IMG/VR virus record: IMGVR_UViG_3300021378_000116
Coordinates: 1 to 28,755 of that record
DNA from: a virus
DNA: 28,755 nucleotides
Strand: one strand, 5' to 3'
A program made the translations under genes and the position numbers. Under the pieces are notes generated by a model. That model made no database searches. It worked only from the letters and a program-made list of their open reading frames with translations, and was not told the origin of the DNA. The first letter of the stretch is position 1. Each line of letters starts with the position of its first letter. This document shows positions 2 through 26,542 of the stretch, piece after piece.

Positions 2-1057
2 CATAGTGGTTTGTCTAAAGACACTAAGCAGAAACGAGATGCACACTTTAAAGCAAAGAAAAGTGGACCTGCACCTGGTGATGATGAAGGTAAAACTAAG
101 AAGTCAGTTCATACTAAGAAGTTTGAGAAACAGTTTGGCGAAGAAACCGTGATAGTAGAAAAGATTACAGGTTTGGTAAACAAGGCAGAGAAATCAGGCA
201 TCTCATATGGTATTCTAAAGAAAGTTTACGATAGGGGATTGGCTGCATATAAGACTGGTCATAGACCTGGTACAACTGCACCACAATGGGCATTTGCCAG
301 AGTGAATAGTTTTATTACTAAAGGTTCCGGCACATGGGGTAAGGCAGACAAAGACCTCGCAAACAAAGTTAAGGGTGAATCATTTGTTGCAGACGAAGAC
401 TTCACAATGGATGAAGCATGTTGGGATGGTTACAAACAAGTTGGTACAAAAAAGAAAGGTGGAAAAGTAGTTCCTAATTGTGTACCAGAAGAGACAGAGA
501 TAGAAGAGAACGCAAAAGTCAAAGCAATGTTAAGTAAGATGAAAGGTGTTTCATCTGCCCAGGCACAATTAATTGCACAAATACCAATACCTGTATTGAC
601 TCAAATATCACAGGCATTAGGTCAGTTAGTAATGGGTGAAGAACTGGAAGAACGACATTCAGATGTAATGAGAAAGAGAACTCAGTCTCAACAAAAGGCA
701 CATCAAAAAGCAATGATGAAGTCCGCAAGAAAGTCTATCAAAGACTATGATGCAAAGAATAAGAATAAGAACGAAGAGTCTGAAGTAGAAGAAGATAGAG
801 ATTACAAAAAAGAATATGAAAACTATCAAGGTAAACCAGACCAAATCAAAAGACGAGCTGCAAGAAACGCCGCTAGAAATCAGTTAAAAGACAACAAAGA
901 CATAAAGGGTAAAGATGTTCATCATAAAGATAACAACCCAATGAATAATGATAAATCAAATCTATCGGTAGTATCTAAAAACTATAATAGAAAAGAACCT
1001 AGACTTAGAGAGAGACTAGTAAAACAGGGGATATTGAAAAATGGCAAACGGAAATAA
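2..1057 (+). CDS. DUF5872-like virion-associated protein with HNH-like C-terminus (5' partial)
   Basis: The frame is open to the left edge (His-Ser-Gly-Leu-Ser precede the first in-window TTG), so the true start lies upstream; the TTG at 11 is probably not a start. Visible length is 351 residues. A block at roughly residues 55-110 (KSGISYGILKKVYDRG, TGHRPGTTAPQWAFARV) is the pattern I associate with DUF5872 proteins of marine T4-like phages. Next comes a WDGYKQVG...VPNC motif, then a Lys/Glu-rich linker. The last ~70 residues contain VHHKDNNPMNNDKSNL, which has the His-His...Asn-Asn spacing of an HNH (beta-beta-alpha metal) nuclease core. The cysteine pairs of zinc-stabilised HNH proteins are absent. 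It overlaps the next gene by 17 nt. A packaged or structural role is inferred from context; nuclease activity is only a motif-based suggestion. Confidence 0.7.
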   Translation, partial: HSGLSKDTKQKRDAHFKAKKSGPAPGDDEGKTKKSVHTKKFEKQFGEETVIVEKITGLVNKAEKSGISYGILKKVYDRGLAAYKTGHRPGTTAPQWAFARVNSFITKGSGTWGKADKDLANKVKGESFVADEDFTMDEACWDGYKQVGTKKKGGKVVPNCVPEETEIEENAKVKAMLSKMKGVSSAQAQLIAQIPIPVLTQISQALGQLVMGEELEERHSDVMRKRTQSQQKAHQKAMMKSARKSIKDYDAKNKNKNEESEVEEDRDYKKEYENYQGKPDQIKRRAARNAARNQLKDNKDIKGKDVHHKDNNPMNNDKSNLSVVSKNYNRKEPRLRERLVKQGILKNGKRK

Positions 1058-1919
1058 AACAGACAATGGTGTTCATCTAATGGGCACAGATGAAATGCTT
1101 GCCGCTTACAAGGCAGACACACCAGGTGAATTAGAAACATCTTATACTGAAAATGTAGACAAGATGATTAAGATTCAAGGTAAGAAGAACAAAGAGGGCA
1201 AGAAGAATCATATGTCTATGTTGTTTGATAATCCTTTAAAGGGATATCCTTATAATGAGTCAGTAGAACTGAAAGAACTCGAAGAAGAACTCGATGCATT
1301 GATTTTATCTGAAGCATTATCTAAGAGAATGGACATCAAAAAGTACGCAAAGAGAGTTGCATTTGATAAAGAAGAACTGAAATGGATTGTAGACAACGAA
1401 GAAGAACAACATTACGAAAACAATAGTCCTATAAAAAGTTTTATTGCCCTATCATACCCAATTAGAACAGGTGATTACTACTTTGCATTTATTGGTGACA
1501 GAATGACCGAAGAACAAATCACTAAGGCAAATAACAAAATGAATGATGCCATGAGAAAGTATTTTCAAATGGGTCAAAAGAAACTAAACACATTCTATGA
1601 TGATGATGCAGAATACAGTAAGAAAGATATGCTTGCATCATACATGTGGAATGAAATGTCAGCAGAGTTTGAAAAACTACCTGCTAATCTAGGTGCAGGC
1701 GATACAATGACTAGAGAAGAATTGCATGGTGCTATCACACATATGACAGGCGATGGTGAGATTGTATTCGAACATACCACTATGGCAGATGACATAATCA
1801 ACGAAGGTATGTTTAAGAATCTTGCAAAAGGTATCATGGGTAGAATTAGAAACAAACTCAGAAAGGTTACCAAAAAGATTAAACTTAAGAAGAAAGCAAA
1901 AGATTTAATGGTGAAGTAA
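1041..1919 (+). CDS. conserved hypothetical, probable virion-associated protein
   Basis: A 292-residue protein that I do not recognise by function. It begins with a short polar segment, is strongly charged throughout, and ends in a very basic tail (RNKLRKVTKKIKLKKKAK). A central part around residues 95-165 (IKSFIALSYPIRTGDYYFAFIGDRM) looks like a folded alpha/beta domain. The ATG lies inside the end of the previous gene, and the stop overlaps the next start (TAATG), so translation is probably coupled. The charge composition and position among late genes suggest an internal or packaged protein. That is inference only. Confidence 0.6.
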   Translation: MANGNKTDNGVHLMGTDEMLAAYKADTPGELETSYTENVDKMIKIQGKKNKEGKKNHMSMLFDNPLKGYPYNESVELKELEEELDALILSEALSKRMDIKKYAKRVAFDKEELKWIVDNEEEQHYENNSPIKSFIALSYPIRTGDYYFAFIGDRMTEEQITKANNKMNDAMRKYFQMGQKKLNTFYDDDAEYSKKDMLASYMWNEMSAEFEKLPANLGAGDTMTREELHGAITHMTGDGEIVFEHTTMADDIINEGMFKNLAKGIMGRIRNKLRKVTKKIKLKKKAKDLMVK

Positions 1920-2326
1920 TGATTAAGGATTTCAGGTCTTTATTTGAAGAAGAATCTACACCAGAAGTAATTTCTGAGGTAGACTCTATACAAACTAGAA
2001 TGAAGAAACGCAGAGCGATGCGTAAGAATAGAGCGAAGATTGCCTTTGCACGAAAGAAGGCGATGAAGAGAAAGATTCTAGACCCTAAGAAACTTATGAA
2101 GAGGGCACAAAAACAGGCAAGAAGTAAGATTGCCTCTAGAATTCTTAAAGGTAAAAATAAAGCAGAATTGGGTATGGGTCAAAAGAGGGCTCTAGAAAAG
2201 ATACTCGATAAGAAAACAAAAGCAATATCAAAACTCGCCAAGAAGATGTTGAAAGTCGTAAGACAAAAAGAAATGAACAAAGGCAAGAAGACATTAAAAG
2301 ATATTGCACCAGGTAAAACCAAATGA
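1919..2326 (+). CDS. small highly basic protein, probable internal virion protein
   Basis: A 135-residue protein dominated by Lys/Arg (for example RMKKRRAMRKNRAKIAFARKK) with predicted helices and no hydrophobic segment. The N-terminus, MIKDFRSLFEEEST, is a short amphipathic stretch ending in Glu. It resembles the packaged-protein leader of T4, where a gp21-type protease cuts after Glu. The basic body would suit DNA binding inside a capsid. It starts at a TAATG overlap and shares 4 nt with the next gene. Similar small basic proteins occur in marine T4-like phages. No enzyme function is visible. Confidence 0.6.
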   Translation: MIKDFRSLFEEESTPEVISEVDSIQTRMKKRRAMRKNRAKIAFARKKAMKRKILDPKKLMKRAQKQARSKIASRILKGKNKAELGMGQKRALEKILDKKTKAISKLAKKMLKVVRQKEMNKGKKTLKDIAPGKTK

Positions 2327-2868
2327 AAATAAACACATTTAAAGGCATGGCTATCGATGACACATTGAGAGACTTGCAGATGACAGAAACAAATCTATTA
2401 GATAATCCATTCAGACTAGGTTCAATGATGTACTTTGAGGTAATCAAAGAGGCAAGAAAACTAGTTGCAGAAGGAAGATATAATCTTACAGAGATAGATA
2501 AACAAGTCTTAGAGACAAACTTAGGTGAGTATGATATCTATGAGAATGAACTTGTACCTTTAGATTGTCCTATGATGGAGATGACCGAAGAAGAAGATAA
2601 AGATGTTGCAATAGGTAAACCTAAATCAGGCGGGCCTAAGAAGTTCTATGTCTATGTTAAAGATGGTGACAAGACAAAGAAAGTCACATTCGGAGATACA
2701 TCAGGTCTATCAGTAAAATTTAAAGACCCTAAGGCAAGAGCATCATATGTCGCAAGACATAATTGTGATACTGCAAATGATAAAACCACACCAGGATATT
2801 GGTCATGTAGACTACCAAGATACGCAAAACAACTTGGTTTGAGTGGTGGTGGTTCATTTTTCTGGTAA
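2323..2868 (+). CDS. conserved marine-phage protein with RHNCD...YWSCR motif
   Basis: A 181-residue protein. The N-terminal ~85 residues are acidic and helical. After a Gly/Lys linker (GKPKSGGPKKFYVYVKDGD) comes a C-terminal domain with KVTFGD, RASYVARHNCD and GYWSCRLPRYA. This Cys/His set recurs in T4-like marine phage proteins, often as the last domain of larger structural or packaged proteins; it could bind metal, but only two cysteines are present here. The start overlaps the previous stop by 4 nt (ATGA). Biochemical role unknown. Confidence 0.6.
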   Translation: MKINTFKGMAIDDTLRDLQMTETNLLDNPFRLGSMMYFEVIKEARKLVAEGRYNLTEIDKQVLETNLGEYDIYENELVPLDCPMMEMTEEEDKDVAIGKPKSGGPKKFYVYVKDGDKTKKVTFGDTSGLSVKFKDPKARASYVARHNCDTANDKTTPGYWSCRLPRYAKQLGLSGGGSFFW

Positions 2869-2878
2869 AAAATAACAC

Positions 2879-2885
2879 CTAAATA
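2879..2885 (+). promoter_or_regulatory. T4-type late promoter, leaderless configuration
   Basis: CTAAATA matches the core of the T4 late consensus TATAAATA apart from the first base. Exactly five bases (TTTGT) separate it from the ATG at 2891, which puts the start codon at the expected +1. There is no Shine-Dalgarno sequence in the gap. Confidence 0.55.
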
Positions 2886-2890
2886 TTTGT

Positions 2891-3172
2891 ATGAAACCAT
2901 ACAGAGAACGAATAGAAGAACAGCATGGTACAGGTCGAGAGTTCATATACCGAACATTCGAACCAAATATATCAGATGACGAACTCGTTTGGCATAGAGA
3001 TAAAAAGAATCGATGTGTACATGTATTGAGTGGAAGTGGTTGGCAATTACAGTTAGATGACAAATTGCCTAAAGATTTAACAATAGGATTAGATTACTAC
3101 ATACCCAAGATGACTTATCATAGAGTCATCAAAGGCATTAATGACCTAGTCGTAAGGATTGAGAACATATAA
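2891..3172 (+). CDS. small cupin-like protein
   Basis: A 93-residue, beta-rich protein. The arrangement CVHVLSGSGWQLQLDD, then YIPKMTYHRVIKGINDLVVRI, matches the two half-motifs of a single-domain cupin: a beta strand with a Gly turn, then a Pro, a His and a final 'hydrophobic-x-I' strand. Only some of the usual metal ligands are visible, so it may be a non-catalytic cupin fold. It follows a late-promoter-like box with no leader, and its TAA stop lies inside the TATAAATA box that precedes the next gene. Small cupins of this kind occur among marine T4-like phage late genes. Substrate unknown. Confidence 0.6.
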   Translation: MKPYRERIEEQHGTGREFIYRTFEPNISDDELVWHRDKKNRCVHVLSGSGWQLQLDDKLPKDLTIGLDYYIPKMTYHRVIKGINDLVVRIENI

Positions 3173-3175
3173 ATA
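3168..3175 (+). promoter_or_regulatory. perfect T4-type late promoter TATAAATA
   Basis: An exact match to the T4 late consensus. It overlaps the TAA stop of the cupin gene (3170-3172). Eight bases follow before the ATG at 3184, so any 5' leader would be only about three bases. Confidence 0.7.
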
Positions 3176-3183
3176 ACTATATC

Positions 3184-3549
3184 ATGGAAAACAAAACTTG
3201 GAAAGATAAACTAGAAGAAGTAAGAGGTTTTAATAAAACCGAAACTTCTCCAGCAATTATAGATGAGAAATTAACATCTGATGAAATCGAGGAAATGCTC
3301 AAAGAAGAGTTTAAAGAACTCGCAGAGGGCGAAGAGAAGGCAGTGGAGTCACTCGAAGAAAAACGAGATAGACTTAAAGAAGAACTCGCACAAATAGAAG
3401 AAGAGATTGCTACATCAGCTGAGTCAGTTGAGAAAACCATAGAAAAATTAACAGAAAGAAATATGCTTGGCAGACTTGCTAAGTCTTTAAAACTTAATGA
3501 AACTGGTAAACAAAAGATGTTTGACTATTTCGAACAAGGGGAACTATAA
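3184..3549 (+). CDS. coiled-coil protein, probable late/virion protein
   Basis: A 121-residue acidic protein. Residues ~28-95 are almost continuous heptad-like helix rich in Glu/Lys/Leu (KEEFKELAEGEEKAVESLE and following), consistent with a coiled coil. No catalytic motif or membrane segment is seen. A perfect late promoter lies 8 nt upstream and the stop overlaps the next start (TAATG), so it heads a late transcription unit running at least to 4400. A scaffold or packaged role is possible but unproven. Confidence 0.6.
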   Translation: MENKTWKDKLEEVRGFNKTETSPAIIDEKLTSDEIEEMLKEEFKELAEGEEKAVESLEEKRDRLKEELAQIEEEIATSAESVEKTIEKLTERNMLGRLAKSLKLNETGKQKMFDYFEQGEL

Positions 3550-4400
3550 TGAAATTAACAGATAAAGGCGTATCAGACCAATTAGTTGCTGATATGAGAA
3601 CCATGTTAGAGGGTCATCTATCAGAAGAACCGTTTAATGCAAACGCAGCTTTAAAGAAACAAAGAATTAAGGGTATGCAAGACAAACTCGAAAATCTAAG
3701 AACACAAAGACAACGAGCTGATGATTCTGCTAAAGAGGCAAGAGAACAAGGTAGAGATGACGCCGCTGATGGTCATGAAGAAAAGGGCGATAGAATTAAC
3801 AACAATATCAGAGACCTTAAGTCAAAGATAAGAGATGAGATGAACGAAGATAACACCAACGACAAGTCAGACGATGGTGAAGGTCTAGATAAAGTTAAAA
3901 AAGATGCAGTTAAGAAGAAGTTTGCAGACCGTAAAGACAAAGATATCGACAACGATGGCGATACTGATTCTTCAGACGAATACCTTCATAAGAAAAGACA
4001 GGCAATCTCCAAGAAAATGGATGAGGGCGAATTACCACCTGCTCTTCAGAAAGCAATCGACAAGAAGAAAGGTAAAGACTCTGATGACGAAGACGAAGAC
4101 AAGGAAGAATCATATAGATCCGGTGGTGCTAATAGTGCGAGATGGGCTGCAAACAAAGCAAAAAACGCAAAAAACAAAAAAGAAGAAGTCAAAGAAGGTG
4201 AATTACCCCCAGCACTAAAGAAGGCAATTGCTAAGAAGAAAGGTGACGAGGATGAGAAAGAAGTCGAAGAAGGCAAAGACAAAATCAAATATCGTGGTAA
4301 TCTAAAAGATTTGAAGGCAATGAAAGAAGACTTCATGATAATCATAGAGAAGTATGGATTAGACCAAGTTAAGACTATTATCAACTCAATCGAGAAATAA
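3549..4400 (+). CDS. acidic/charged virion-associated protein with PPALKKAI repeats
   Basis: A 283-residue protein with very high Lys, Glu and Asp content. Around residues 130-150 it has DKDIDNDGDTDSSDEYLHKK, which resembles a calcium-binding EF-hand/dockerin-type Asp-rich loop. Two copies of GELPPAL[Q/K]KAI[D/A]KKKG occur near residues 159-175 and 216-232. Both signatures are common in marine T4-like phage structural or packaged proteins. The final ~35 residues form a hydrophobic/amphipathic helix (FMIIIEKYGLDQVKTIINSI). No enzyme motif. Low-complexity composition makes deeper assignment unsafe. Confidence 0.6.
   Translation: MKLTDKGVSDQLVADMRTMLEGHLSEEPFNANAALKKQRIKGMQDKLENLRTQRQRADDSAKEAREQGRDDAADGHEEKGDRINNNIRDLKSKIRDEMNEDNTNDKSDDGEGLDKVKKDAVKKKFADRKDKDIDNDGDTDSSDEYLHKKRQAISKKMDEGELPPALQKAIDKKKGKDSDDEDEDKEESYRSGGANSARWAANKAKNAKNKKEEVKEGELPPALKKAIAKKKGDEDEKEVEEGKDKIKYRGNLKDLKAMKEDFMIIIEKYGLDQVKTIINSIEK
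4024..4242 (+). repeat. two-copy protein-level repeat (GELPPALxKAIxKKKG)
   Basis: The copies lie at about 4024-4071 and 4195-4242, inside the 3549-4400 gene. The amino-acid sequence is kept but many codons differ (for example TTACCACCTGCT versus TTACCCCCAGCA), so the duplication is old or under protein-level selection. Confidence 0.7.
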
Positions 4401-4401
4401 C

Positions 4402-6084
4402 ATGAATCTGTTTCAAGAGGCAAAGTCAGTTTTAGATAAGGATGGTAAAGTAAACCCTTTAGGTCCTTACGGCAAACAAAAACTCACAGGTAGAGAAACA
4501 TCTGCCTATTTTCGTAGAAACAAAGTAAAACCAGGCGATATCAAGAAGGCAGTAGAAGTTGCACTTGATTTGGGTGGTGCTATGGATATCGCATCTAAAG
4601 AAATCAAAAAGTTCTTTGGTGATAAAGTTTTAAAGGCGAAAGAAGTTCAGAACGCATTAAGATATGCAAACGAAGAAACATTTAAAGATGACCTCAACGA
4701 TTTAGAAGAGGGTTCATTCTATGGTAGAGATGACTTAGTTAAACAGTTTGCAACACCTAAAAAAGACAGACATAAGTATATAAAATTAAGAAAAACCGAT
4801 TCTAAAGGCACATCAGGTGTCAGTATGAAGAGACAAGGCAACGAGAAGAAGATTGCTGATTACAAACGACAAGGGTACAAAGAAGTATCAGTCGAATCTG
4901 TAGAAGAGGGTTTCAAACCTTACAATGACAAACAGTATCCTAGATGTGTAGATTTCTACATTCAGTTCAGAGGTGGTAAAGGAGACAGAATCACTTCACC
5001 AGAGAATAAGAAAGACTATGAAACTGCAAAGAAGATGATTGATACATATTGCAGAACAAACAAAATCAAACAGAAACCAGTTTACTCAACACCTGAAGAG
5101 GGTTCAAGTGCATACAAAGTCGGTCTTATGATTGACAATACTTACAGTAAAACATCTGATTATAAAGACGGCAAAGACTTGCAACCTTTATATGTGTCAC
5201 TAAGTAAACTAAAGACCGCAGAAGACCACGGTGGTGGTTGGAGTCAAGCAGTAGTTAAAGAAGAAACTGTATCAGAAAATGCAGACATGGTACTCCATGT
5301 TGATGATAAACTTCAAACAAATCTTGTTGTTAAAATGGCAGGTAAATTCGGACTAAAATCAAAGAAAACTAAAATTTCTTGGTCAGGTAAAGACGGAGTT
5401 GTTGTATCAGGTGATTCAAATAAATTAAAGCAGTTTATGTCATCAGTTGAAAAAGTATTTAAAGAAGAAACAGATTTAACAGAAAACTACAGAAAACTCG
5501 CACAACATGGCATGGGTGCAGAGGCGAAGAAAGATATAAAAAATGGTACAGGTGTAGATTTCTATGAACCCAAACAAGGTAATAAAAGACAAGGTAAAGT
5601 CACTAAGATGACTGCTACTGGTTACTCAGTTAAAGATGAGAAAGATGGTAAAACATATACATTTATGTATCACGACAGAATGAAGGCAAAGAAACTTCTT
5701 CAGAAGAAAGATAAACTATCTAACATTATTAAGAAGAACACCATCAAGAAAGGTAAGTTCGCTGGGTACATGACTGATTCAGTAGAAGAGGCACAACAAG
5801 GTGCAAGACAGTCAGTTATGGACACATATAGAAATATATGGGAAGAAGATTTACGAGAAGAGATGATTACTTACAGAGTTAAGAAGATGCATCCTGCTGA
5901 AAAGAAAAAGTTCGAACAGTCAGGAAAGATGATGGGTCTAAAAGTCACCATGAATACTAACAAACAAGATACATTAGTTGTTATGAGTGGCACTAAAAAG
6001 AAACTCAGAGACTTTGATTCAGTTGCAAGGGGTAAATCATCATATGGTGATCCTTCAACAGTATCACACTTTGACGAGAAATAA
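4402..6084 (+). CDS. large conserved hypothetical, probable packaged virion protein
   Basis: A 560-residue, multi-domain, lysine-rich protein. Visible blocks are a helical N-terminal domain (~10-90, ending NALRYANEE); a possible folded domain at ~170-285 with Cys residues (YPRCVDFYIQFRGGKGD); and two related alpha/beta units at ~294-358 and ~486-545. Each unit runs 'helix, K-x-x-G-L-K, beta, hydrophobic-V-S-G, K-L-[K/R]-x-F'. The units are joined by 'VEEG/VEEA' linkers. The N-terminus (MNLFQEAKS) resembles a short packaged-protein leader. It begins 1 nt after the preceding stop. No enzymatic signature was found. Confidence 0.6.
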   Translation: MNLFQEAKSVLDKDGKVNPLGPYGKQKLTGRETSAYFRRNKVKPGDIKKAVEVALDLGGAMDIASKEIKKFFGDKVLKAKEVQNALRYANEETFKDDLNDLEEGSFYGRDDLVKQFATPKKDRHKYIKLRKTDSKGTSGVSMKRQGNEKKIADYKRQGYKEVSVESVEEGFKPYNDKQYPRCVDFYIQFRGGKGDRITSPENKKDYETAKKMIDTYCRTNKIKQKPVYSTPEEGSSAYKVGLMIDNTYSKTSDYKDGKDLQPLYVSLSKLKTAEDHGGGWSQAVVKEETVSENADMVLHVDDKLQTNLVVKMAGKFGLKSKKTKISWSGKDGVVVSGDSNKLKQFMSSVEKVFKEETDLTENYRKLAQHGMGAEAKKDIKNGTGVDFYEPKQGNKRQGKVTKMTATGYSVKDEKDGKTYTFMYHDRMKAKKLLQKKDKLSNIIKKNTIKKGKFAGYMTDSVEEAQQGARQSVMDTYRNIWEEDLREEMITYRVKKMHPAEKKKFEQSGKMMGLKVTMNTNKQDTLVVMSGTKKKLRDFDSVARGKSSYGDPSTVSHFDEK

Positions 6085-6085
6085 T

Positions 6086-6415
6086 ATGTCATATAAAAGT
6101 CTAGTACAAGTAATTAAAGAACACAATGATGGCAAAGAAGAAATCATTGAAAGAATAGACTTTCATAAGAAAAGTCCTGCTGAGAAAAAGGGTTCAGAGT
6201 TTAATAGAAAACAAGAAATCAATGGCTATAAAAAGATTTTAAAGACTGTTGAAAAACTTAACAAAGACCACGAGAAGTTTCAATATAACAATCGTGCAGC
6301 TCAAGGGCCAGACAAAATATTTAAAGGTCTACAACAAGTCGAAAGTGCATGTTATGACATGATACGACAAATTGAATCGGGCAAATGGGACGGTAAGGTA
6401 GACCTAGAAGACTAA
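6086..6415 (+). CDS. small helical hypothetical protein
   Basis: A 109-residue protein. I chose the ATG at 6086, one base after the previous stop, rather than an in-frame ATG further upstream inside the neighbouring gene. It is mostly helical and charged, starting MSYKSLVQVIKEHNDG, again a short amphipathic helix before a charged body. Its stop overlaps the next ATG by 1 nt (TAATG). No known domain recognised. Confidence 0.55.
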   Translation: MSYKSLVQVIKEHNDGKEEIIERIDFHKKSPAEKKGSEFNRKQEINGYKKILKTVEKLNKDHEKFQYNNRAAQGPDKIFKGLQQVESACYDMIRQIESGKWDGKVDLED

Positions 6416-6975
6416 TGGATAAAGTAGACGCCAGAACAAAGATGTTTAAAGAAAAGTTAAAGAGACTTAACTATAAAAAACATATTACAGATGCAATTGA
6501 AGCATCATCAAATGTCAAACAAGTAATGGAAAAGATTGCTGACTTTGGTATGATGTCAGATGCAGGTAATAAAAAAATTGCTCGTGCTGTTGCACAATCT
6601 AAGAATGAGAAAGATTTAAGAGCAAAGTTGTTGAAGATATCAACAATGGCAAAGGGTAAGTATGCAGAGGCAGAAGAGGATGAAGTCTTCAATCGTGCCA
6701 TGGATGCAATGCAATCAAAGGCAACTGGTGTACAGAATAGACCAGATGCAACGATGTTAATACAACTTCGTAAATTCAAAGATGGAACCAAAGATGGTGA
6801 AGTTAGAACAGATGATATGAAGAAGATTAAGGTCAAAAACGCAGATGCAGTCAAAGTTCATGACACTTTAATGAAGGTTCGAGCACCAATTCGAACTAAA
6901 TACTTACAACTATTACAAAAAGACAAAAACACTTTTAGTAAAACATTTAATGCAATCTTAAAGGTTGCGAAATAG
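6415..6975 (+). CDS. helical, lysine-rich hypothetical virion-associated protein
   Basis: A 186-residue protein that is predicted to be nearly all helix, with internal similarity between 'IADFGMMSDAGNKKIARAVAQSK' and later segments and no cysteines. It is translationally coupled to the preceding gene. It ends 9 nt before the next ATG, which has its own strong Shine-Dalgarno. Probably the last gene of the charged packaged-protein group. Function unknown. Confidence 0.55.
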   Translation: MDKVDARTKMFKEKLKRLNYKKHITDAIEASSNVKQVMEKIADFGMMSDAGNKKIARAVAQSKNEKDLRAKLLKISTMAKGKYAEAEEDEVFNRAMDAMQSKATGVQNRPDATMLIQLRKFKDGTKDGEVRTDDMKKIKVKNADAVKVHDTLMKVRAPIRTKYLQLLQKDKNTFSKTFNAILKVAK

Positions 6976-6984
6976 GAGAATAAA

Positions 6985-7530
6985 ATGGCATTATGGGGAA
7001 TTTCAGATGCAGACGAATCGAAACCTAAGTGGTTAACCGATGCAGATAAGAAGAAAGTTTACGCTGACGCTAGTGGTTGGAGATTTGAAAACCCTAAAAG
7101 TGGCGCAACAGACGAAATCTTATGTGCAGTAAGTGGACTTGCAGTTTCAATTGGTTCTGCTGATATTACAGAGATAGAGTTTATTTCAACAGCATTTGAT
7201 AAATCAGAGGGTGGTACATTATCTGTACGAGTCAGATTTAACGAGGCAGTTGCAGTCACAGGCACACCACAACTTACAGTTGTAAATGACCAAAGAACAA
7301 ATCACACATTATCATACGCAAGTGGTACAGGTTCTAACGAACTAGTATTCAGTCTTGTAATTGGTGCTGCTAACGCTGCTACAAATGCAGGTGATGTTCT
7401 AAGTATTGGTGCAAATGCGATGGCTCTAAACAGTGGTACTGTAAAAGATAACGGTACTTCTACAAACGCAACTATTACCAATATCGCAGGAATTGGTACT
7501 GCTGCTGGTACAATTACAGTAGCTGCATAA
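6985..7530 (+). CDS. beta-sandwich structural/decoration-like protein
   Basis: A 181-residue protein with composition quite unlike its neighbours: rich in Thr, Ser, Ala, Gly and Val, poor in charge. The N-terminus, MALWGISDADESKPKWL, followed by a 'VYADASGW' segment, is a signature I know from marine T4-like phage structural proteins. Residues ~60-175 read as a bacterial Ig-like beta sandwich (RVRFNEAVAVTGTPQLTV, LVFSLVIGA, TITNIAGIGTAAGTITV). A good Shine-Dalgarno (AGGAG, 7 nt before ATG) suggests high expression. A head-decoration or fibre-like role is inferred. Confidence 0.65.
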   Translation: MALWGISDADESKPKWLTDADKKKVYADASGWRFENPKSGATDEILCAVSGLAVSIGSADITEIEFISTAFDKSEGGTLSVRVRFNEAVAVTGTPQLTVVNDQRTNHTLSYASGTGSNELVFSLVIGAANAATNAGDVLSIGANAMALNSGTVKDNGTSTNATITNIAGIGTAAGTITVAA

Positions 7531-7540
7531 GGGAATAATT

Positions 7541-7804
7541 ATGAAAATTAAAGTATTAGGAACAGAGGCCGCATGTGGAGTATCTTCTACTAACGGTTCT
7601 AACTTTGGTAGTTCAACTGCCGTAAGATTAGTCAACACAGGCGCAACAGATAGGTTAGTGTCAATTGAGACTAGTGCTAATAGTTTAATTGGGACATTCA
7701 CTTTAAAAGCAAATACATCAGAGGTCGTATCAAAAGACGCCTCTGATGAAGTCTTTGCAGCCAACGCCGAAGTTAAAGGTGTTGGTGTTGCAATACAAGG
7801 ATAA
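7541..7804 (+). CDS. small beta-rich structural protein
   Basis: An 87-residue Gly/Ser/Thr/Val-rich protein with alternating beta strands (MKIKVLGTEAA, TAVRLVNTGATDRLVSI, GTFTLKANTSEVV, EVKGVGVAI). This is a small beta-barrel or sandwich typical of minor virion proteins that pair with the preceding Ig-like protein in marine myoviruses. The Shine-Dalgarno AGGGA lies ~7 nt upstream and the gap to the previous gene is 10 nt. Precise virion location unknown. Confidence 0.6.
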   Translation: MKIKVLGTEAACGVSSTNGSNFGSSTAVRLVNTGATDRLVSIETSANSLIGTFTLKANTSEVVSKDASDEVFAANAEVKGVGVAIQG

Positions 7805-7808
7805 AATT

Positions 7809-8228
7809 ATGAAAACATTTAACGAATATTTAATTGAAAATTTAGGTGGGGACTTTGGTTTAGACTCAACAGTACCTTATGACATAGATTCACAGGCAGT
7901 TAAGAACAAACTTAATGCAGTGTTGGGTCATGTTGCAGTATCAGAGTTTATGAATCCTCTCGCCGCTATTCAACAAATGGAATCAAAACTCTCTCAAATG
8001 GGTCTACATAAGAAAGTTCAATCAGACGGACATGGTGTAGTACAAGATGAAGAGTTCTCAGGTTCTGGTGAATTAAACTTAGAGTTTACTCAATTTGGTG
8101 GGGTGTTTGGTAAATCAGTAGATACACCTATCGATGAGATTGAGAAAGAAGAAAGAAACATTTCTCTCAAAGTTAAATATGAACAGTTAGAAACTGGTTC
8201 ATTCAAAGTTTACGGTTCAATCGTTTAA
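7809..8228 (+). CDS. probable packaged virion protein with T4 capsid-targeting-like N-terminus
   Basis: A 139-residue protein. I chose the ATG at 7809, 4 nt after the previous stop. The first ten residues, MKTFNEYLIE, match T4's IPI/IPIII capsid-targeting leader MKTYQEFIAE position by position with only conservative differences except Ile for Ala. In T4 the gp21 protease cuts after that Glu. The rest is a mixed alpha/beta domain with a long strand-rich C-terminus (GELNLEFTQFGG, RNISLKVKYEQ, GSFKVYGSIV). It closes the transcription unit; a strong inverted repeat follows. Confidence 0.65.
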   Translation: MKTFNEYLIENLGGDFGLDSTVPYDIDSQAVKNKLNAVLGHVAVSEFMNPLAAIQQMESKLSQMGLHKKVQSDGHGVVQDEEFSGSGELNLEFTQFGGVFGKSVDTPIDEIEKEERNISLKVKYEQLETGSFKVYGSIV

Positions 8229-8285: not shown

Positions 8286-8657
8286 ATGGGTCTATTTGAC
8301 AAAATCACAGCAAAAAACTTTAATGCATACGCACATAAGCATTATGATGATCCCCAATGTGAAGACATTGAGGACTTTAATGAAGACTTGCGTAGGTTTA
8401 GATATCTAAAACGACTGCTTCATCGTTACCATGAGAATGGTGAATTAAGAGAACGCCTCATGTTGAATCATATCATATGTTTATTCAATGTGTTTGGATT
8501 TGAGGCATGTATGAGAATGTTGCAGTTTAAGATTAAAGATGACGAACATTGGTCATCTATAAAGACTATGTTATTATATCTTGAACTCATACAAGAGGGT
8601 TGGTTAATAAACTATCCAATAGACGATAAACTTGCAGACAGATTGAGAGAATTGTAG
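8286..8657 (+). CDS. conserved T4-like marine phage hypothetical (helical)
   Basis: A 123-residue helical protein. The strings NAYAHKHYDDPQCEDIEDFNED, RRFRYLKRLLHRY and LNHIICLFNVFG mark a family widely conserved in T4-like marine phages (I believe DUF7207, from memory only). No enzymatic motif. It follows the 8234-8275 hairpin with a ~30-nt leader, unlike its leaderless neighbours, and is followed by its own spacer carrying the next late promoter. Confidence 0.65.
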   Translation: MGLFDKITAKNFNAYAHKHYDDPQCEDIEDFNEDLRRFRYLKRLLHRYHENGELRERLMLNHIICLFNVFGFEACMRMLQFKIKDDEHWSSIKTMLLYLELIQEGWLINYPIDDKLADRLREL

Positions 8658-8682: not shown

Positions 8683-9303
8683 ATGGTCGGAAGAGTAATA
8701 GACAGTTTAATCGTATTCAGGATTCTTAAGATGTTGACAACACCTTTTGAGAAGACACCTGCCTATAAGTTTGGGTTCATTGACCAGAATGGTGTCAGAG
8801 TCAAGTTCATAACAGACCCAGACAATAAAAATCAAAAACTCGCAAACAACCCAAAATCAAAAGAAGAGAAGAACTCTCTCACACCTTTACATAGACTCGT
8901 ATTCAATCTAAAGAAACTAATTAGAAAAGTGCCTGGTGGTAAGTCACAATTGGCATCATATGCAGTCGCACTTGGTTTACTCAAAGAACATACTAACTTA
9001 GATTCTGAACAGGCAGACCAGTTATATGAAGACTTCTATAGATTACTGAAAGACGAAGATGCATTTCAACCAGAGATGATTGAAGAGGCACAAGACATTG
9101 GTAAATTAAAGATGAGTGATTCTGATTATCATCTAAGAACTCAAATCAAACAGAACTTTGATGAGAATGAAGAAATCAAAATATATCCAGAAAAATCAAC
9201 AGTCACCAATGTTGCAGAACATAGTATAGGTTATGGTGTACTAATATATGAGGGGTACATAGGGGAAGATAGAGTCCTGTTTACCGCAGAAGATGTATAT
9301 TAA
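8683..9303 (+). CDS. conserved T4-like marine phage protein, N-terminal hydrophobic helix
   Basis: A 206-residue protein. The N-terminus (VGRVIDSLIVFRILKMLTTPF) is a hydrophobic/amphipathic helix followed by FEKTPAYKFGFID. This pattern recurs in a conserved late protein of marine T4-like phages. The middle is charged and helical, with a GGKSQLASYAVALGLL segment. The last 40 residues are beta-rich. It starts immediately after a late promoter and overlaps the next gene by 11 nt. Role unknown; virion-associated by context. Confidence 0.6.
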   Translation: MVGRVIDSLIVFRILKMLTTPFEKTPAYKFGFIDQNGVRVKFITDPDNKNQKLANNPKSKEEKNSLTPLHRLVFNLKKLIRKVPGGKSQLASYAVALGLLKEHTNLDSEQADQLYEDFYRLLKDEDAFQPEMIEEAQDIGKLKMSDSDYHLRTQIKQNFDENEEIKIYPEKSTVTNVAEHSIGYGVLIYEGYIGEDRVLFTAEDVY

Positions 9304-11098
9304 CGAAGTATTATATCACATTGATGAAGACTACAAACAATATTGTGATGCAATAGACTCCATATGTGAAGAACTTCTAGTTGAAGAAGACAAAAAGAAA
9401 GATGCATGGTTCTTCGACATGTCGCCAGAGAAACAACAAGACTATCTCAAGTCACATCCAGATTCAGATAAGGCAAAAGAACTCAAAAGAAAACTACAAT
9501 CAATGCCCAAAAAGGGCGACCAAGGTGATACGAGACCGGCACCGGATAAAAAATCTCCGAAGGGGAATGTAGCGAAGACAAATCCCGACAAGGACGCCAC
9601 ACCTTCTGAGAAACCTAAGAACGATGTTGGTGGTTCATTACCAACTCAAGTTGCAGACTTGAAACAACACATAGGCGAATTGAAAGATGCAATAGGTTTA
9701 GATATCGCAACTATTGGTAAGGCATTTAAAGAACCTTCAGTATATAATACAGTCAAGGCGATTGGTGGTTCAATAACTGCAACATCTAAGACCATAATGG
9801 GTTCACTTAGAACTATAGGTAAAAGTCTTACTGTAGGGGGTGCTGCTATACATGATACTAAGACATTCCAACAGTTAGAAAAGGGTCTAATTAAAACAGA
9901 TGAGTTCATGCAGAAGAATAAAGTACTCGCAACAATGAGTGCTGTGGGTGTATCAAGTCTTGCAATAGGTCAATGGTTAAGAATGTCATTCTCTGGTGAT
10001 ATAGAATCAGATTTTGACTTGACTATTATACCACAGGCATTTGCAGGAAACGCTGGGTTCGCAGACTTGATTGCAACGCCAGATGGTATCAAGGGTATTG
10101 GTTTATTGAGTGCTGGTATGGCAACAGGTGGTCTACCTATATGGATGGGTGGTCCTGTTGGTCTTGCAATGGCATTAACATATTCTGGTTTAGTCAGTGC
10201 AGGTGATACAAAGAAAGGCGCTGAGATTAAAAAGAAAATGGTCGATTGGGCAGATAAGATGAGGTCATCAACTGGTGATGTACTGAAAAAGGTCGATAAG
10301 AAACTTGGTCTAACAACAGAGTCATTGATGAATCCATCGAACATAGATAAACTTCAATTCGATGTATTTGAGAAACTAAAGAAACCCAAATATCACAAAG
10401 TAGAAATATTTGAAGATGGTTGGTCAGAAATAGAAATGATATCCCCACCTACAAACAGTTCTAAAACAACTAAGTCAGAATTAGAAACAGTCATCAAAGA
10501 GTCAAACAACGCAACAGATGAAATCAAAAAGAAGTACATCAATTGTGCTGATGACCCATGTTATTACATCAAAGAATACATGGAAGACTCAGACTTAGAG
10601 TTTGATGAAGAGTATATGGATTACATCGTAGACCAATGTACACCAGTAATCAGACACTTTAAAAATTCATTCAACAGACCTAGACCATATCAAGTTGCAG
10701 AAGCACTTAATATGAAACTTAAAAAATGGAAAACAGGAACTGCAAACTCTCCTTCATATCCATCAGGTCATTCAATGCAACCATATCTGGTTGCAAACTT
10801 CTATGCAGAGAAATATCCAGAACATGAGGGTAATCTTAGAGATGCCGCTGATATATGTGCATATGGAAGAGTTCAAGCTGGGTTGCATTACCCAACAGAT
10901 TATAACGCAGGTATACAACTTGCAGATGAAATGGCAAAGTATCTTAAAGACGACTTAAAAGAAGATGCGCCAGTGAACGCTACAGGCAGTGCTGTATCAA
11001 CAGACACACCTTTAGTGAGAAGTAGAAACAAGTATCTAAAAAAGAATAAAGAAGATTCTAAGAAGATTTTCGGTCTTTTAAAAAGATACTCTAAGTAA
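9293..11098 (+). CDS. large virion-associated protein with C-terminal PAP2/haloperoxidase-type phosphatase domain
   Basis: A 601-residue protein. The N-terminal ~130 residues are charged and Pro/Lys-rich; residues ~130-330 contain helices and hydrophobic, glycine-rich stretches (ATMSAVGVSSLAIGQWL; GIGLLSAGMATGGLPIWMGG) that could insert into membranes. The C-terminal domain carries all three signature blocks of the PAP2/vanadium haloperoxidase family: K457-x6-R464-P465, P490-S-G-H493, and R526-x5-H532-x3-D536. These are the residues that bind phosphate, form the phospho-histidine and relay protons. The family dephosphorylates lipid or small phosphomonoesters. A free small-molecule phosphatase is equally possible; substrate not determinable. 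It overlaps the preceding gene by 11 nt, and the next gene starts 3 nt later. Confidence 0.75.
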   Translation: MYINEVLYHIDEDYKQYCDAIDSICEELLVEEDKKKDAWFFDMSPEKQQDYLKSHPDSDKAKELKRKLQSMPKKGDQGDTRPAPDKKSPKGNVAKTNPDKDATPSEKPKNDVGGSLPTQVADLKQHIGELKDAIGLDIATIGKAFKEPSVYNTVKAIGGSITATSKTIMGSLRTIGKSLTVGGAAIHDTKTFQQLEKGLIKTDEFMQKNKVLATMSAVGVSSLAIGQWLRMSFSGDIESDFDLTIIPQAFAGNAGFADLIATPDGIKGIGLLSAGMATGGLPIWMGGPVGLAMALTYSGLVSAGDTKKGAEIKKKMVDWADKMRSSTGDVLKKVDKKLGLTTESLMNPSNIDKLQFDVFEKLKKPKYHKVEIFEDGWSEIEMISPPTNSSKTTKSELETVIKESNNATDEIKKKYINCADDPCYYIKEYMEDSDLEFDEEYMDYIVDQCTPVIRHFKNSFNRPRPYQVAEALNMKLKKWKTGTANSPSYPSGHSMQPYLVANFYAEKYPEHEGNLRDAADICAYGRVQAGLHYPTDYNAGIQLADEMAKYLKDDLKEDAPVNATGSAVSTDTPLVRSRNKYLKKNKEDSKKIFGLLKRYSK

Positions 11099-11954: not shown

Positions 11955-12989
11955 ATGTTATGGTTAGAGCGAAAATACTTGTCGATGGTTATGGTCTACT
12001 TAGACCGTGCCAAATGGACAAACGAGAATACGATGAATCACAGGTGCAATTACTGTGGCGATTCGCAAAAGAATGTATATAAGGCACGAGGGTTTCACTT
12101 CGTCAAAGAACAATCATTCATCTTCAAATGCCATAACTGTGGTAAGTCAACATCTTCGATAAACTTTATCAAAGACCATTGGCCATCAGTTCACAAAGAA
12201 TATCTGAAAGAATTTCTATCAGAAAAAGGTATGAAACCTAAAAGAAAAATGCCATCATCGAGCGCTTTTAAGTTCACCCCACGAACAGATAATCTAAATA
12301 AAACTGTGGTCAAAAAAGAGAACAGTCTCAAGGCAGTCGCCTTTCCTGTTCTCGAAAAGGCAATCGCAAAAAACTATCTTTTAGATAGAAAAATACCAGA
12401 ATCTTCAATGACTGATTTATGGTTCGTACAACAGGCACAAACTCTCAGTTTGTTATCTGATAAGTACAAAGATAGGGTTCTCGGTAAAGACCCTAGAATA
12501 ATATTGCCATTCTATGACGAGAATGGTGAATTGATTGGTGTATCTGGTCGTGCAATTAACGACTCACCATTAAGATATATGACCATGAGATTCAGAGATG
12601 ATGTACCACTTATCTTCAATCTTAATAAAGTGGACAAAACAAAGACAATCTATGTCACTGAGGGACCAATAGATAGTCTATTCCTACCGAATAGTATCGC
12701 AGTTGCAGGTAGTGATTTTAAAAAGATACAAGATGATATAAAAGATAACGCAATACTAATATATGATAACGAACCAAGAAACGCCGAAATAATCAAAAAA
12801 ATAGAAGAGGTCATTGACCTTGGGTATAAGGTGTGCATCTGGAACGATAGAAGAATAGAAGATTGCAAAGATATAAATGATATGGTTATAAGGGGTTTGA
12901 GTGAAAGTGAGATTATCGAAATCATCAATCGTAATACAGTTTACGGTCTCTCAGCAAAATTACAATTGATGGAGTATAAGAAAATATGA
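11955..12989 (+). CDS. 61: DNA primase, T4 gp61 family
   Basis: A 344-residue protein, close to T4 gp61 (342 residues). It synthesises RNA primers for lagging-strand replication with the gp41-type helicase. An N-terminal zinc ribbon uses C31-x2-C34 and C59-x2-C62 (CNYCGDS / CHNCG). The TOPRIM catalytic core shows E236 in the EGPIDSLF motif and D271-N-E273 in YDNEPR. The last residues, GLSAKLQLMEYKKI, parallel the T4 C-terminus GLMAKMRLSKYAKI. The ATG is 8 nt after a TATAAT box with no Shine-Dalgarno; a second in-frame Met at residue 11 would remove little. It overlaps nrdA by 4 nt (ATGA), linking primer synthesis to nucleotide supply in one transcript. Confidence 0.92.
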   Translation: MLWLERKYLSMVMVYLDRAKWTNENTMNHRCNYCGDSQKNVYKARGFHFVKEQSFIFKCHNCGKSTSSINFIKDHWPSVHKEYLKEFLSEKGMKPKRKMPSSSAFKFTPRTDNLNKTVVKKENSLKAVAFPVLEKAIAKNYLLDRKIPESSMTDLWFVQQAQTLSLLSDKYKDRVLGKDPRIILPFYDENGELIGVSGRAINDSPLRYMTMRFRDDVPLIFNLNKVDKTKTIYVTEGPIDSLFLPNSIAVAGSDFKKIQDDIKDNAILIYDNEPRNAEIIKKIEEVIDLGYKVCIWNDRRIEDCKDINDMVIRGLSESEIIEIINRNTVYGLSAKLQLMEYKKI

Positions 12990-19512: not shown

Positions 19513-19984
19513 TTGTTCACTACTACCTGAACGAAAGGTAGAGATAGTCAGTAAACCCCTAGAGATAGAAATCATGCAACCTGATTTACCACGACCAGTA
19601 GAATTGACTGCACCCAAATGGTTTGTAGTATCTGAGGCACGAATAGTAAATCCATGTAAGAGAACATTATCATTTGAACCTAAGAAGTTTGACGAGAATA
19701 AGGTAGAACAACTTAAACGACCAAAGACATGTGAACTAGACCAGAGAGAGAATCCTGACTGGCCATTAGGTTATACATATCTTGACAGATTCTTAGATGA
19801 GATGAAAGAACAGAACAATGGCGAGGTGCTATTTGTTGCAACCTCAGTTGGCGATTACAAAGTCATGGCAGAAGACATGCAAGAACTAAAACGATACATC
19901 AAACAACTTGGTGAAGTCGTACTATATTATAGAGAAGTCACTACAAAGACTGAAGCGAAAGTTAATGAGACCAATAAAGACTAA
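19463..19984 (+). CDS. o-spanin-like outer-membrane lipoprotein (Rz1-like)
   Basis: A 173-residue protein. An N-terminal hydrophobic signal with lipobox L15-S-S-C18 (SALIILLSSCSLLPE) indicates signal peptidase II processing and a lipid-anchored Cys. The mature part starts Pro-rich (QPDLPRPVELTAPKW), as in o-spanins, and then has a conserved domain (VSEARIVNPCK, NPDWPLGYTYLDRFLDE, MQELKRYIKQLGEVVLYYR) seen in marine T4-like phages. That domain is longer than a minimal Rz1, so an extra function is possible. It overlaps the i-spanin gene by 50 nt in a different frame. Confidence 0.7.
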   Translation: MIQRNFTISALIILLSSCSLLPERKVEIVSKPLEIEIMQPDLPRPVELTAPKWFVVSEARIVNPCKRTLSFEPKKFDENKVEQLKRPKTCELDQRENPDWPLGYTYLDRFLDEMKEQNNGEVLFVATSVGDYKVMAEDMQELKRYIKQLGEVVLYYREVTTKTEAKVNETNKD

Positions 19985-20732
19985 TACATTAAAGAACACA
20001 TATGGACCGTGTAGAGGAGAGTATAAACAAACTTTCTCTACACCCATGTTTCAAGGTAAGGCAAACCTCAATCATGAAATTGTCGCAGAACACTGTAGAG
20101 ATGTAGTAGGTAGAATACCAAAGGGTAATACAGAAACAGAATACACAACCTACTTCGAGCACGATTTGAGAGAAGAGACACATAACCAACCATGGTTCAA
20201 CGACTTCGCAAATCAGATGAAAGATACTTACATCGAATTCATCCGTAAAATGTGGCATTTCGATGTGACTGGAATATCTCGACATGACATACACCTATTT
20301 TCATGGGTGAATGTATATAATGAACCACACTCCCATTCAGTTCATAATCATGTCAAGTCCAGACTATCTGGTACCTACTATGTCTCTACAGATTCTAATT
20401 CAGAACCAATTACCTTTTATCATCCTAACATGAGTTCTCTTTTTGGTCATGGCGCCAGTGATGGTCAACACGAAGATGGTCAATATACATTTCAAGGTAC
20501 GCCAGGTGGTCAGACAGAAATGGCATTTTATGCTGAAACTGGTGACTTCTTACTATGGCCCTCGTACTTGACCCATGCAGTACCACAGGGTCGGTCACGA
20601 GGAAAAGGATTAATAGGTGAGATTAAAGATTACGAAAGAATATCAATCTCTTTCAATTTACAACATGCAGAAGATTTAGGGTCATATCATCATGGTGACC
20701 CATTTGATTATGGAGTTTTGAGTAATGAGTAA
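19965..20732 (+). CDS. 2OG-Fe(II) oxygenase (2OG-FeII_Oxy_5-like)
   Basis: A 255-residue protein. I chose the ATG at 19965, which overlaps the o-spanin stop by 20 nt, over a further upstream in-frame ATG. A His-rich motif near residues 122-130 (EPHSHSVHNHVKSRLSGTYYV) supplies the proximal iron ligands. H204 in FLLWPSYLTHAVPQ is the distal ligand. ERISISFNLQH is the terminal strand carrying the 2OG-binding Arg. The 'LSGTYYV...LWPS..H.VP...RISISFN' arrangement is typical of the phage 2OG-FeII_Oxy_5 family. Substrate unknown. It is the first of four adjacent oxygenase genes. Confidence 0.75.
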   Translation: MRPIKTNTLKNTYGPCRGEYKQTFSTPMFQGKANLNHEIVAEHCRDVVGRIPKGNTETEYTTYFEHDLREETHNQPWFNDFANQMKDTYIEFIRKMWHFDVTGISRHDIHLFSWVNVYNEPHSHSVHNHVKSRLSGTYYVSTDSNSEPITFYHPNMSSLFGHGASDGQHEDGQYTFQGTPGGQTEMAFYAETGDFLLWPSYLTHAVPQGRSRGKGLIGEIKDYERISISFNLQHAEDLGSYHHGDPFDYGVLSNE

Positions 20733-21405
20733 ACCAATTATACTAGATGAACTATACAAAATGAAAGGTTCATTTGCAGATGCTAAGTTTGACGGTTTCT
20801 GTTTGACCATAGACGACTTCTATGAGAACGCCGAAGATTTGTATCAACACTTGACTAACAGAGATTACCCAATGTGGAAATATAATCCTGAATCACCAAC
20901 ACGAAATGGTGTAGACTATTACGACTGTAGAATAGTTGACAAGGTTGGTCACCCTACAAGAATCTATGAAACAGAACATCAAAGAATATTAGATGTATGT
21001 CGTAGATACTGGCACAAAGGTGACTACAACTGGTCACGACTATATGAGTTCAACTGTTTTAAAACTGGTGAGATTACAGACCCAAAGTATCAACACTATC
21101 CACACATCGATAGTAAATTAGATACGCCAGACAATTGTGCTACACTCAACATGCTGGTCTATCTTGACAAAGAAGAAGATGGTGGTACAGCAGTTTATGA
21201 TGGTGAATGGATTACTAATGACGAGAACATGAATGTGTTATATCCTGTAGAAGAGAGATTCAACATTCGAACTATGATTAAGGCGAAGTTCAATAGATGT
21301 GTTATATTTCCAGGTAATTATATGCACGGTGCTTGGATTGACAATTATGATAAATACATCGACAACTGGAGATTCACACAAGTGACTTTCTTCCACCCAA
21401 ATTAG
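20725..21405 (+). CDS. 2OG-Fe(II) oxygenase-like protein
   Basis: A 226-residue protein overlapping the previous gene by 8 nt. H127-x-D129 in HYPHIDSK, then NMLVYLDKEEDGGTAVYDG (the central jelly-roll strand and Gly-Gly turn), H201 in NRCVIFPGNYMHGAWI, and R216 in NWRFTQVTFFHPN form a complete 2-His-1-carboxylate plus Arg set with normal spacing. This subfamily is common in marine T4-like phages. It most likely hydroxylates a macromolecule, but nothing here identifies the target. Confidence 0.75.
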   Translation: MSKPIILDELYKMKGSFADAKFDGFCLTIDDFYENAEDLYQHLTNRDYPMWKYNPESPTRNGVDYYDCRIVDKVGHPTRIYETEHQRILDVCRRYWHKGDYNWSRLYEFNCFKTGEITDPKYQHYPHIDSKLDTPDNCATLNMLVYLDKEEDGGTAVYDGEWITNDENMNVLYPVEERFNIRTMIKAKFNRCVIFPGNYMHGAWIDNYDKYIDNWRFTQVTFFHPN

Positions 21406-21414
21406 GAGATAACA

Positions 21415-22203: not shown

Positions 22204-22288
22204 CGGTCATGTTGAACATGTCTGGTGTGATGCATATTGCAGTCATGACTGGCATTGTGAGAATAGACCAAGAAATAAAGGATTTTAA
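22106..22288 (+). CDS. 60-residue zinc-ribbon-like protein overlapping an oxygenase gene
   Basis: The first 98 nt overlap the 3' end of the preceding oxygenase in another frame; the rest is unique. A purine-rich Shine-Dalgarno-like tract (GAGGAAGAG) precedes the ATG. The protein has CSQC (residues ~13-16) and, later, WCDAYCSHDWHC, so four to five Cys and several His could form a zinc site. It ends directly at the next ATG (TAAATG). This tight fit supports it as real. DNA- or protein-binding is possible; function unknown. Confidence 0.6.
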   Translation: MNQRTTTVPTAKCSQCQKLLKLQEVKYHSPMNNGHVEHVWCDAYCSHDWHCENRPRNKGF

Positions 22289-26512: not shown

Positions 26513-26542
26513 TTGACAGTGACCCTCACTTTTTGTTATGGT
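26513..26542 (+). promoter_or_regulatory. early sigma70-type promoter, copy 1
   Basis: TTGACA (26513-26518), an 18-nt spacer and TATGGT (26537-26542). The spacer contains CTCACTTTTTG, shared exactly with copy 2 about 203 nt downstream. Likely host-polymerase early promoter. Confidence 0.7.

What the first reader, a model, noticed from the sequence alone, without database searches (positions are those of the whole stretch)
7809..7838. T4-like capsid-targeting leader on a marine phage protein
MKTFNEYLIE matches the T4 internal-protein leader MKTYQEFIAE, which directs proteins into the prohead and is cut after Glu by gp21. Weaker look-alikes start the genes at 1919 (KDFRSLFEE), 4402 (MNLFQEA) and 6086 (SLVQVIKE). 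This would identify the 1919-8228 block as packaged, ejected proteins.
Basis: partly seen in the sequence, partly recalled or inferred. Interest (0 to 1): 0.55.

Follow-up and report, generated by a model that had tools for sequence, protein, structure and literature searches.

The report
T4-type capsid-entry tag in marine phages
A short protein tag that coliphage T4 uses to load proteins into its head, from where they are injected into the host, also sits on a conserved unknown protein of an uncultured ocean phage and on enzymes found in particles of related cyanophages, so it may show what these viruses inject.

Summary
The finding holds. The gene at 7809 starts MKTFNEYLIE. In 26 aligned sequences F4 and F/Y7 are invariant and I/L/V8 and E10 hold in 25, while positions 3, 5, 6, 9 and 11 onward vary and an indel-rich linker follows. 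In T4 IPIII positions 4 and 7 direct head targeting and 8 and 10 the gp21 cut (PMC9026906 passages). A near-identical relative encodes the gp21-type S77 protease and keeps an L-x-E|A site in its major capsid protein. The leader also begins unrelated proteins nearby. In three cyanophages with virion mass spectrometry, 6 of 9 leader-bearing proteins were detected, among them NMNAT-like enzymes, a SAM lyase and a kinase (P about 0.002). Against: 2 of 3 in S-SZBM1 and 1 of 2 in S-SCSM1 were not detected; a profile score weakens the S-CREM2 result; the HTVC008M lineage has a degenerate leader; I had no virion data for a 7809 homologue. Best reading: a genuine T4-type capsid-targeting propeptide on a new cargo family.

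The parts
7809..7838 (+). leader MKTFNEYLIE: predicted capsid-targeting propeptide, predicted cut after E10 (codon 7836-7838)
   Evidence: F4 26/26, F/Y7 26/26, I/L/V8 25/26, E10 25/26; neighbouring positions vary
7839..8228 (+). predicted mature cargo protein, 129 aa, pI 4.7, no Pfam or PHROG family at the thresholds used; variable linker then a conserved domain
1919..2326 (+). 135-aa Lys/Arg-rich protein; possible shifted leader MIKDFRSLFEE, clearer in two relatives
   Evidence: L016 MKTFREFLED, L020 MNELKTFKELFED; profile score at background
6086..6415 (+). 109-aa protein; start MSYKSLVQVIKE has an I-x-E but no aromatic pair; one relative (L016) has MKSFKEYNQLNE in front of the same core
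4402..6084 (+). 560-aa modular protein; start MN[LI]F[QH] common among relatives and placed before different modules, but no L/I-x-E at 8-10
2..1057 (+). left-truncated gene (DUF5824, CWxGYK module, HNH_3 below cut-off) whose module matches the MS-detected virion proteins S-SZBM1 gp139 and S-CREM2 gp160; in relative G001 the NMNAT gene lies just left of the corresponding gene
8286..8657 (+). DUF7207 gene, no leader; homologues not detected in virions of three cyanophages
11955..12989 (+). DNA primase (gp61-type), right boundary of the block; nrdA and nrdB follow
   Evidence: synteny

Best explanation
The first ten residues of the 7809 protein are a capsid-targeting propeptide of the T4 type. 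Aromatic residues 4 and 7 dock the newly made protein onto the prohead scaffold core; the phage's own S77 (gp21-type) protease then cuts after E10 at L-I-E|N; the 129-residue remainder stays in the head with the DNA and is probably delivered into the host. Shown here: conservation at the T4 determinants, the same leader on unrelated proteins, the S77 protease and an aligned capsid-protein site in a near-identical relative, and virion detection of 6 of 9 leader-bearing proteins in three related cyanophages. Inferred: docking, cutting and packaging of this particular protein. Delivery into the cell rests on the T4 precedent only.
For: Conservation pattern equals the T4 IPIII mutational map (PMC9026906 passages). 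Scan bias is small: 2 of 26 aligned rows hold the scan peptide MKTFNEYL. The leader is on six unrelated families (blastp E 1e-5 after removing residues 1-12), plus one internal-Met chance hit; one is an adenylate kinase whose domain follows the leader within ten residues. S77 protease in 8 of 8 long contigs chosen from my loci, one of which (G007) is HTVC008M itself. Major capsid protein sites: T4 FLTE|A, S-CREM2 LLTE|A, S-SZBM1 ILTE|A, relative G001 VLSE|A, HTVC008M FLGE|I (alignment; that T4 gp23 is cut there is recalled). Virion MS: S-CREM2 4 of 4 regex matches detected (gp6, gp14, gp136, gp154; Fisher P 0.0029); three phages together 6 of 9 (P 0.0018-0.0019). NMNAT of the S-SCSM1 type: 20 of 23 distinct N-termini match, the other 3 have L at position 4 (47 of 49 loci used; 2 lack the N-terminus). 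Positive control: the exact pattern over the whole T4 record hits ipII, ipIII and gene 61.1 and nothing else.
Against: I had no virion data for a 7809 homologue. In S-SZBM1 gp191 and gp192 carry textbook leaders but were not among 30 detected proteins; S-SCSM1 gp30 likewise is not labelled virion. With the exact T4 residue set S-CREM2 gives 3 of 3 but S-SZBM1 0 of 2. With the profile score S-CREM2's top hit gp175 is not in virions and gp136 falls to 2.9. HTVC008M has no match in 198 genes; its 7809 homologue reads MKSFKDFQNVNE, and HTVC008M-type NMNATs match in 0 of 28 distinct N-termini (49 of 80 loci put in, some distant with uncertain starts). The pattern misses T4 ipI, and its reversed control hits 2 times in HTVC008M and once in G008. 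The S-CREM2 authors warn that non-structural proteins may be carry-over from infected cells. Mature 7809 is acidic (pI 4.7), unlike T4 IPs (7.9-9.7).
Confidence: 0.8

Rival explanations
1. The N-terminal helix is simply part of the 7809 fold (for example a docking or oligomerisation helix) and has nothing to do with head targeting.
For: AlphaFold model shows helix 4-12 (low confidence); no virion data for a 7809 homologue were at hand.
Against: The helix is followed by a low-confidence, indel-rich linker; the same decamer type begins unrelated proteins and matches T4's mapped determinants.
Confidence: 0.1
2. The leader targets the protein to the prohead core, but the protein is a scaffold or assembly component that leaves before maturation, not cargo.
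For: T4 core proteins are also cut by gp21; some leader-bearing proteins are not found in virions (S-SZBM1 gp191, gp192, S-SCSM1 gp30).
Against: The leader is followed by a conserved domain; leader-bearing enzymes are found in virions.
Confidence: 0.15
3. Chance or compositional resemblance of a Lys/Glu-rich start.
For: The other look-alikes in the window score at background.
Against: Expected 0.003 matches over 31 genes; E10 conserved in 25 of 26 aligned sequences; reversed-pattern control hits 0 in 6 of 7 named records and 2 in HTVC008M, 0 in 6 of 7 environmental records and 1 in G008.
Confidence: 0.03

Closest known systems
T4 internal proteins IPII and IPIII with capsid targeting sequence (CTS), cut by gp21
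   Same: Ten-residue N-terminal leader, aromatic 4 and 7, L/I 8, E 10; phage lineage with S77 protease and an aligned capsid-protein cleavage site
   Different: Mature part unrelated by the searches made and acidic, not basic; gene lies between helicase and primase, not beside lysozyme; Kyanoviridae-type phage; processing not demonstrated
T4 IPI
   Same: Starts MKTFKEF, the same first seven residues as some marine leaders
   Different: Lacks L/I-x-E at 8-10; the next such site in its sequence is I-T-E at 17-19
T4 gene 61.1 (54 aa)
   Same: MKTFKEFIKE leader and the same gp41-gp61 interval as the window block
   Different: Its remainder resembles the gp23 segment at the aligned cleavage site (46% over 37 aa), so its leader may derive from that site; annotated hypothetical
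Virion-associated NMNAT-like enzymes, SAM lyase and kinases of cyanophages S-CREM2, S-SCSM1, S-SZBM1, S-CRM01
   Same: Carry the leader and are reported in virions (S-CRM01 kinase by second-hand report); NMNAT lies in the syntenic block of the first three
   Different: Different mature domains; the papers do not mention a targeting leader in the parts read

Membership tests
T4-type capsid targeting sequence | Aromatic residues at 4 and 7 (targeting) | tested here: met
   26 of 26 at both positions
T4-type capsid targeting sequence | L/I at 8 and E at 10 (gp21 site) | tested here: met
   L/I at 8 in 24 of 26, V in one, Q in one; E at 10 in 25 of 26; the misfit row is HTVC008M
T4-type capsid targeting sequence | Transferable: same leader on unrelated proteins | tested here: met
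   six unrelated families; enzymes in cyanophages
T4-type capsid targeting sequence | Same phage encodes an S77 prohead protease | tested here: met
   8 of 8 chosen long contigs, incl. G001 and G002 whose 7809 homologues are 96% and 98% identical; the window itself, a 28.7-kb fragment, has no match
T4-type capsid targeting sequence | Protease uses L/I-x-E in that phage | tested here: inconclusive
   VLSE|A aligned with T4 gp23 FLTE|A in relative G001; sequence only, cutting not observed
T4-type capsid targeting sequence | Leader removed in mature virions | not testable with these tools
   needs N-terminal peptide mapping
T4 internal proteins | Protein present in the virion head | tested here: inconclusive
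   no proteome of a phage with a 7809 homologue at hand; 6 of 9 other leader-bearing proteins detected
T4 internal proteins | Small basic mature protein | tested here: not met
   pI 4.7, family 4.3-5.0; so it is not filed as an IP, though it may work like one

The most novel reading that the evidence does not exclude
The T4 targeting code is a transferable address used across marine T4-like phages to load an arsenal of enzymes (NMNAT-like, SAM lyase, kinase, adenylate kinase, GNAT-like, possibly a nuclease-like protein) and unknown proteins into heads, and the helicase-primase interval is an injected-cargo island. The cargo would act at the moment of entry, for instance by restoring NAD or removing SAM before host defences act.
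Probability: 0.45. Interest if true: 0.78.

Novelty: new member of a known kind. Interest (0 to 1): 0.6.

Why it matters
It gives a sequence rule for predicting which proteins marine T4-like phages carry in their heads. It offers a mechanism for the unexplained virion-associated enzymes of cyanophages, and it names a conserved unknown family as a likely injected protein. Each prediction can be checked by ordinary virion mass spectrometry.

Tried and rejected
Tried: structure of 7809 (mean pLDDT 59) and Foldseek against viral models. Four matches reached E <= 0.001; one is a 1134-aa protein named anti-CBASS Acb1. I treat this only as a lead because the model is weak. Pfam (E up to 0.01) and PHROGs (E up to 0.001) gave no family for 7809. 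Rfam (gathering scores) and tRNA scans of the window were empty. phmmer of 17 window genes against cyanophage proteins matched only the 2-1057 module and DUF7207, so I do not claim that 6985 is a homologue of S-SCSM1 gp95. A tblastn of the 1919 protein in named phages found nothing. A scan with S-CREM2 NMNAT found one locus. The profile approach weakens the S-CREM2 enrichment compared with the regex and is reported. The regex widens the T4 set by V, M and F at position 8 and by variable spacing. The combined P uses variable spacing for two phages and exact ten-residue spacing for S-SCSM1, whose CDS total was varied from 270 to 290. Hits rejected as internal or tiny frames: L002; L163, L164, L165, L173, L178 and L180, judged. 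That leaves 14 of 19 hits and 9 of 10 at plausible gene starts. Rejected: upstream start at 7746.

Rows dropped or selected: HTVC008M row left out of the profile training; one row with an extra residue after Met realigned; two of 49 S-SCSM1-type loci lacked the N-terminus, 2 of 13 window-relative loci gave no ATG start, and 49 of 80 HTVC008M-type loci were put in; the eight contigs were picked for length.

Literature: full-text searches 'cyanophage' + 'capsid targeting' (one paper, where cyanophage stands only in a reference title), 'capsid targeting sequence' (15 papers, listing), 'cyanophage/virion proteome/internal protein' (20 of 21 listed), 'cyanophage/prohead protease/internal head protein/ejection protein' (12 of 43 listed) and 'pelagiphage/HTVC008M/virion proteome/capsid targeting/internal proteins' (12 of 27 listed). 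No title or abstract start in these listings, and no passage I read, reports this leader in marine phages; most subscription papers are not held and supplements were not readable. Passages only were read of PMC9026906, PMC5694885, PMC3012670, PMC10229621, PMC9602691, PMC9964418 and PMC7029224; named sections of PMC10665884 and PMC9146016.

Full report
What the window is. It is a 28,755-base IMG/VR virus record and, by its gene content, a fragment. Gene order and matches (DNA primase at 11955, nrdA at 12986, nrdB at 16199) place it with T4-like phages of the Kyanoviridae (inference). A named phage with the same order is Pelagibacter phage HTVC008M, where the block lies between the gp41-type helicase and the primase. 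Host was not determined.

The observation. Bases 7809-7838 read MKTFNEYLIE. A scan of IMG/VR with the 7809 protein gave 48 loci. In 26 aligned sequences (window, HTVC008M and 24 loci) the first ten residues follow M-K-x-F-x-x-[FY]-[ILV]-x-E: F4 26 of 26, F or Y7 26 of 26, I/L/V8 25 of 26, E10 25 of 26; positions 3, 5, 6, 9, 11 and 12 vary, and the residues that follow are full of insertions and deletions. Codons at F4, F/Y7, I/L8 and E10 also vary synonymously, at F4 and E10 only in one or two of 24. Two of 26 rows contain the peptide used as one of the six scan patterns, so the scan did not create the pattern. The ATG at 7809 is the likely start: 43 of 48 loci have no in-frame start upstream.

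Link to T4. [quoted passage not shown] The conserved positions here are those four. T4 ipII and ipIII in record AF158101 both begin MKTYQEFIAE, and ipI begins MKTFKEF.

The machinery. The window has no match to the protease, as expected of a fragment. The S77 family is present in 8 of 8 long contigs that I chose from the fetched loci; G007 is HTVC008M itself, and G001 and G002 carry 7809 homologues 96% and 98% identical to the window's. In G001 the major capsid protein has VLSE|A aligned with T4 gp23 FLTE|A (that T4 is cut there is recalled).

The leader on other proteins. I examined up to four ATG starts in each ORF of 60 codons or more, both strands, in 131 sources (the window, L001-L050 and L064-L143): 6,891 starts, 90 matches, counting alternative starts of one gene separately. 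With the first 12 residues removed they fall into seven clusters; one is an internal-Met chance hit, the other six are unrelated at blastp E 1e-5, one of them an adenylate kinase. In G003 the NMNAT-like enzyme starts MKTFNGFLTEA and in G005 a 493-aa protein starts MKSFNEYLTE. In the close relative G001 the NMNAT has a possible start MKTLQSFISEA, with L at position 4, the same in 10 loci. NMNATs of the S-SCSM1 type match in 20 of 23 distinct N-termini, the other three having L at position 4; the HTVC008M type matches in 0 of 28.

Virion evidence. S-CREM2: 52 of 219 proteins detected (PMC10665884 Table 3, section 18 read); the four regex matches gp6 (SAM lyase, Pfam), gp14 (kinase, GTG start), gp136 and gp154 (cytidylyltransferase/NMNAT-like) are all detected (P 0.0029). 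gp13 (MKDLHSFLTE, one unique peptide) is also detected but falls outside the regex; gp12, annotated as Cas9-like, has RFASFMAE at residues 18-25, not at its annotated start. S-SZBM1: 30 of 218 detected (PMC9146016 Table 1); gp140, with one residue fewer before the first aromatic, is detected, gp191 and gp192 are not. S-SCSM1: gp91 labelled virion, gp30 not; those labels are GenBank notes, seen for bases 5,500-104,900 of 228,827, and the paper passages state 45 detected. Together 6 of 9, P about 0.0018. S-CRM01's kinase, said by PMC10665884 to have been found in virions, starts MISFDQFLSE. Weaker results: with the exact T4 residues S-CREM2 gives 3 of 3 and S-SZBM1 0 of 2; a profile trained on the 7809 family and T4 gives, at score 7, four S-CREM2 proteins of which three are virion, three S-SZBM1 proteins of which one, and none in HTVC008M.

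The block. In S-SCSM1 7 of 9 genes gp89-97 are labelled virion. In S-CREM2 4 of 7 genes gp154-160, and in S-SZBM1 3 of 10 genes gp133-142, were detected. The module in the window's first gene matches S-SZBM1 gp139 (E 8e-9) and S-CREM2 gp160 (E 9e-7), both detected. The DUF7207 gene at 8286 has homologues in all three phages, none detected. Thus the block is plausibly enriched in virion proteins, but membership has to be decided gene by gene.

T4's own interval. The exact pattern over the whole T4 record hits ipII, ipIII and gene 61.1, which lies between gp41 and gp61. Gene 61.1 resembles the gp23 segment at the aligned cleavage site (E 6e-9), so its leader may have that origin. A search for 'gp61.1' showed one paper holding it, among the five listed, seen only in the listing.

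Mechanism and function. The best-supported mechanism is a targeting propeptide. What the mature 7809 protein does is not known; delivery at entry is inferred from T4. The NAD and SAM ideas are hypotheses from the cargo's names; the NAD-defence literature was seen only as listings.

Noticed in passing
T4 AF158101 18966-19130 (L186): T4 gene 61.1 (54 aa) is a leader plus a segment resembling gp23 at its cleavage site; tblastn at E<=1 finds 1,438 phage records, which may include gp23 itself: 2 of the 20 rows listed are annotated major capsid protein.
   Followed up: partly
window 19962-22927: Four neighbouring genes match 2OG-Fe(II) oxygenase families, one of them (20725) below the cut-off; 25366-26055 (-) looks like a further one by eye only, with no Pfam match.
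   Followed up: partly
window 9293-11098: 601-aa protein with a C-terminal PAP2 phosphatase domain inside the block; several relatives start differently and may lack its long middle part.
   Followed up: no
window 26330-27400: About 1 kb with few ORFs and no Rfam or tRNA match; two similar promoter-like stretches (ggggttgaca...ctcacttttt) near 26510 and 26712, by eye.
   Followed up: no
L155 (G005); L166, L171, L176 (S-CRM01): Leader-bearing proteins include a GNAT-like acetyltransferase (MKTFDEFLTE, by eye), an NMNAT (MKLFNQFFKE) and a 219-aa unknown in S-CRM01, and a 493-aa unknown in G005.
   Followed up: partly
L181, L182 (G002, G001): A 101-aa unknown protein starts MSLFN[GD]YIEE in the two close relatives of the window.
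   Followed up: no
model of 7809, BFVD A0A6J5LTH6: Weak-model Foldseek match (E 8e-4) to part of a 1134-aa phage protein named anti-CBASS Acb1.
   Followed up: no
L134 132-704: Adenylate kinase (Pfam ADK E 7e-44) with a MKSFKQYFFE leader just before its P-loop domain.
   Followed up: partly
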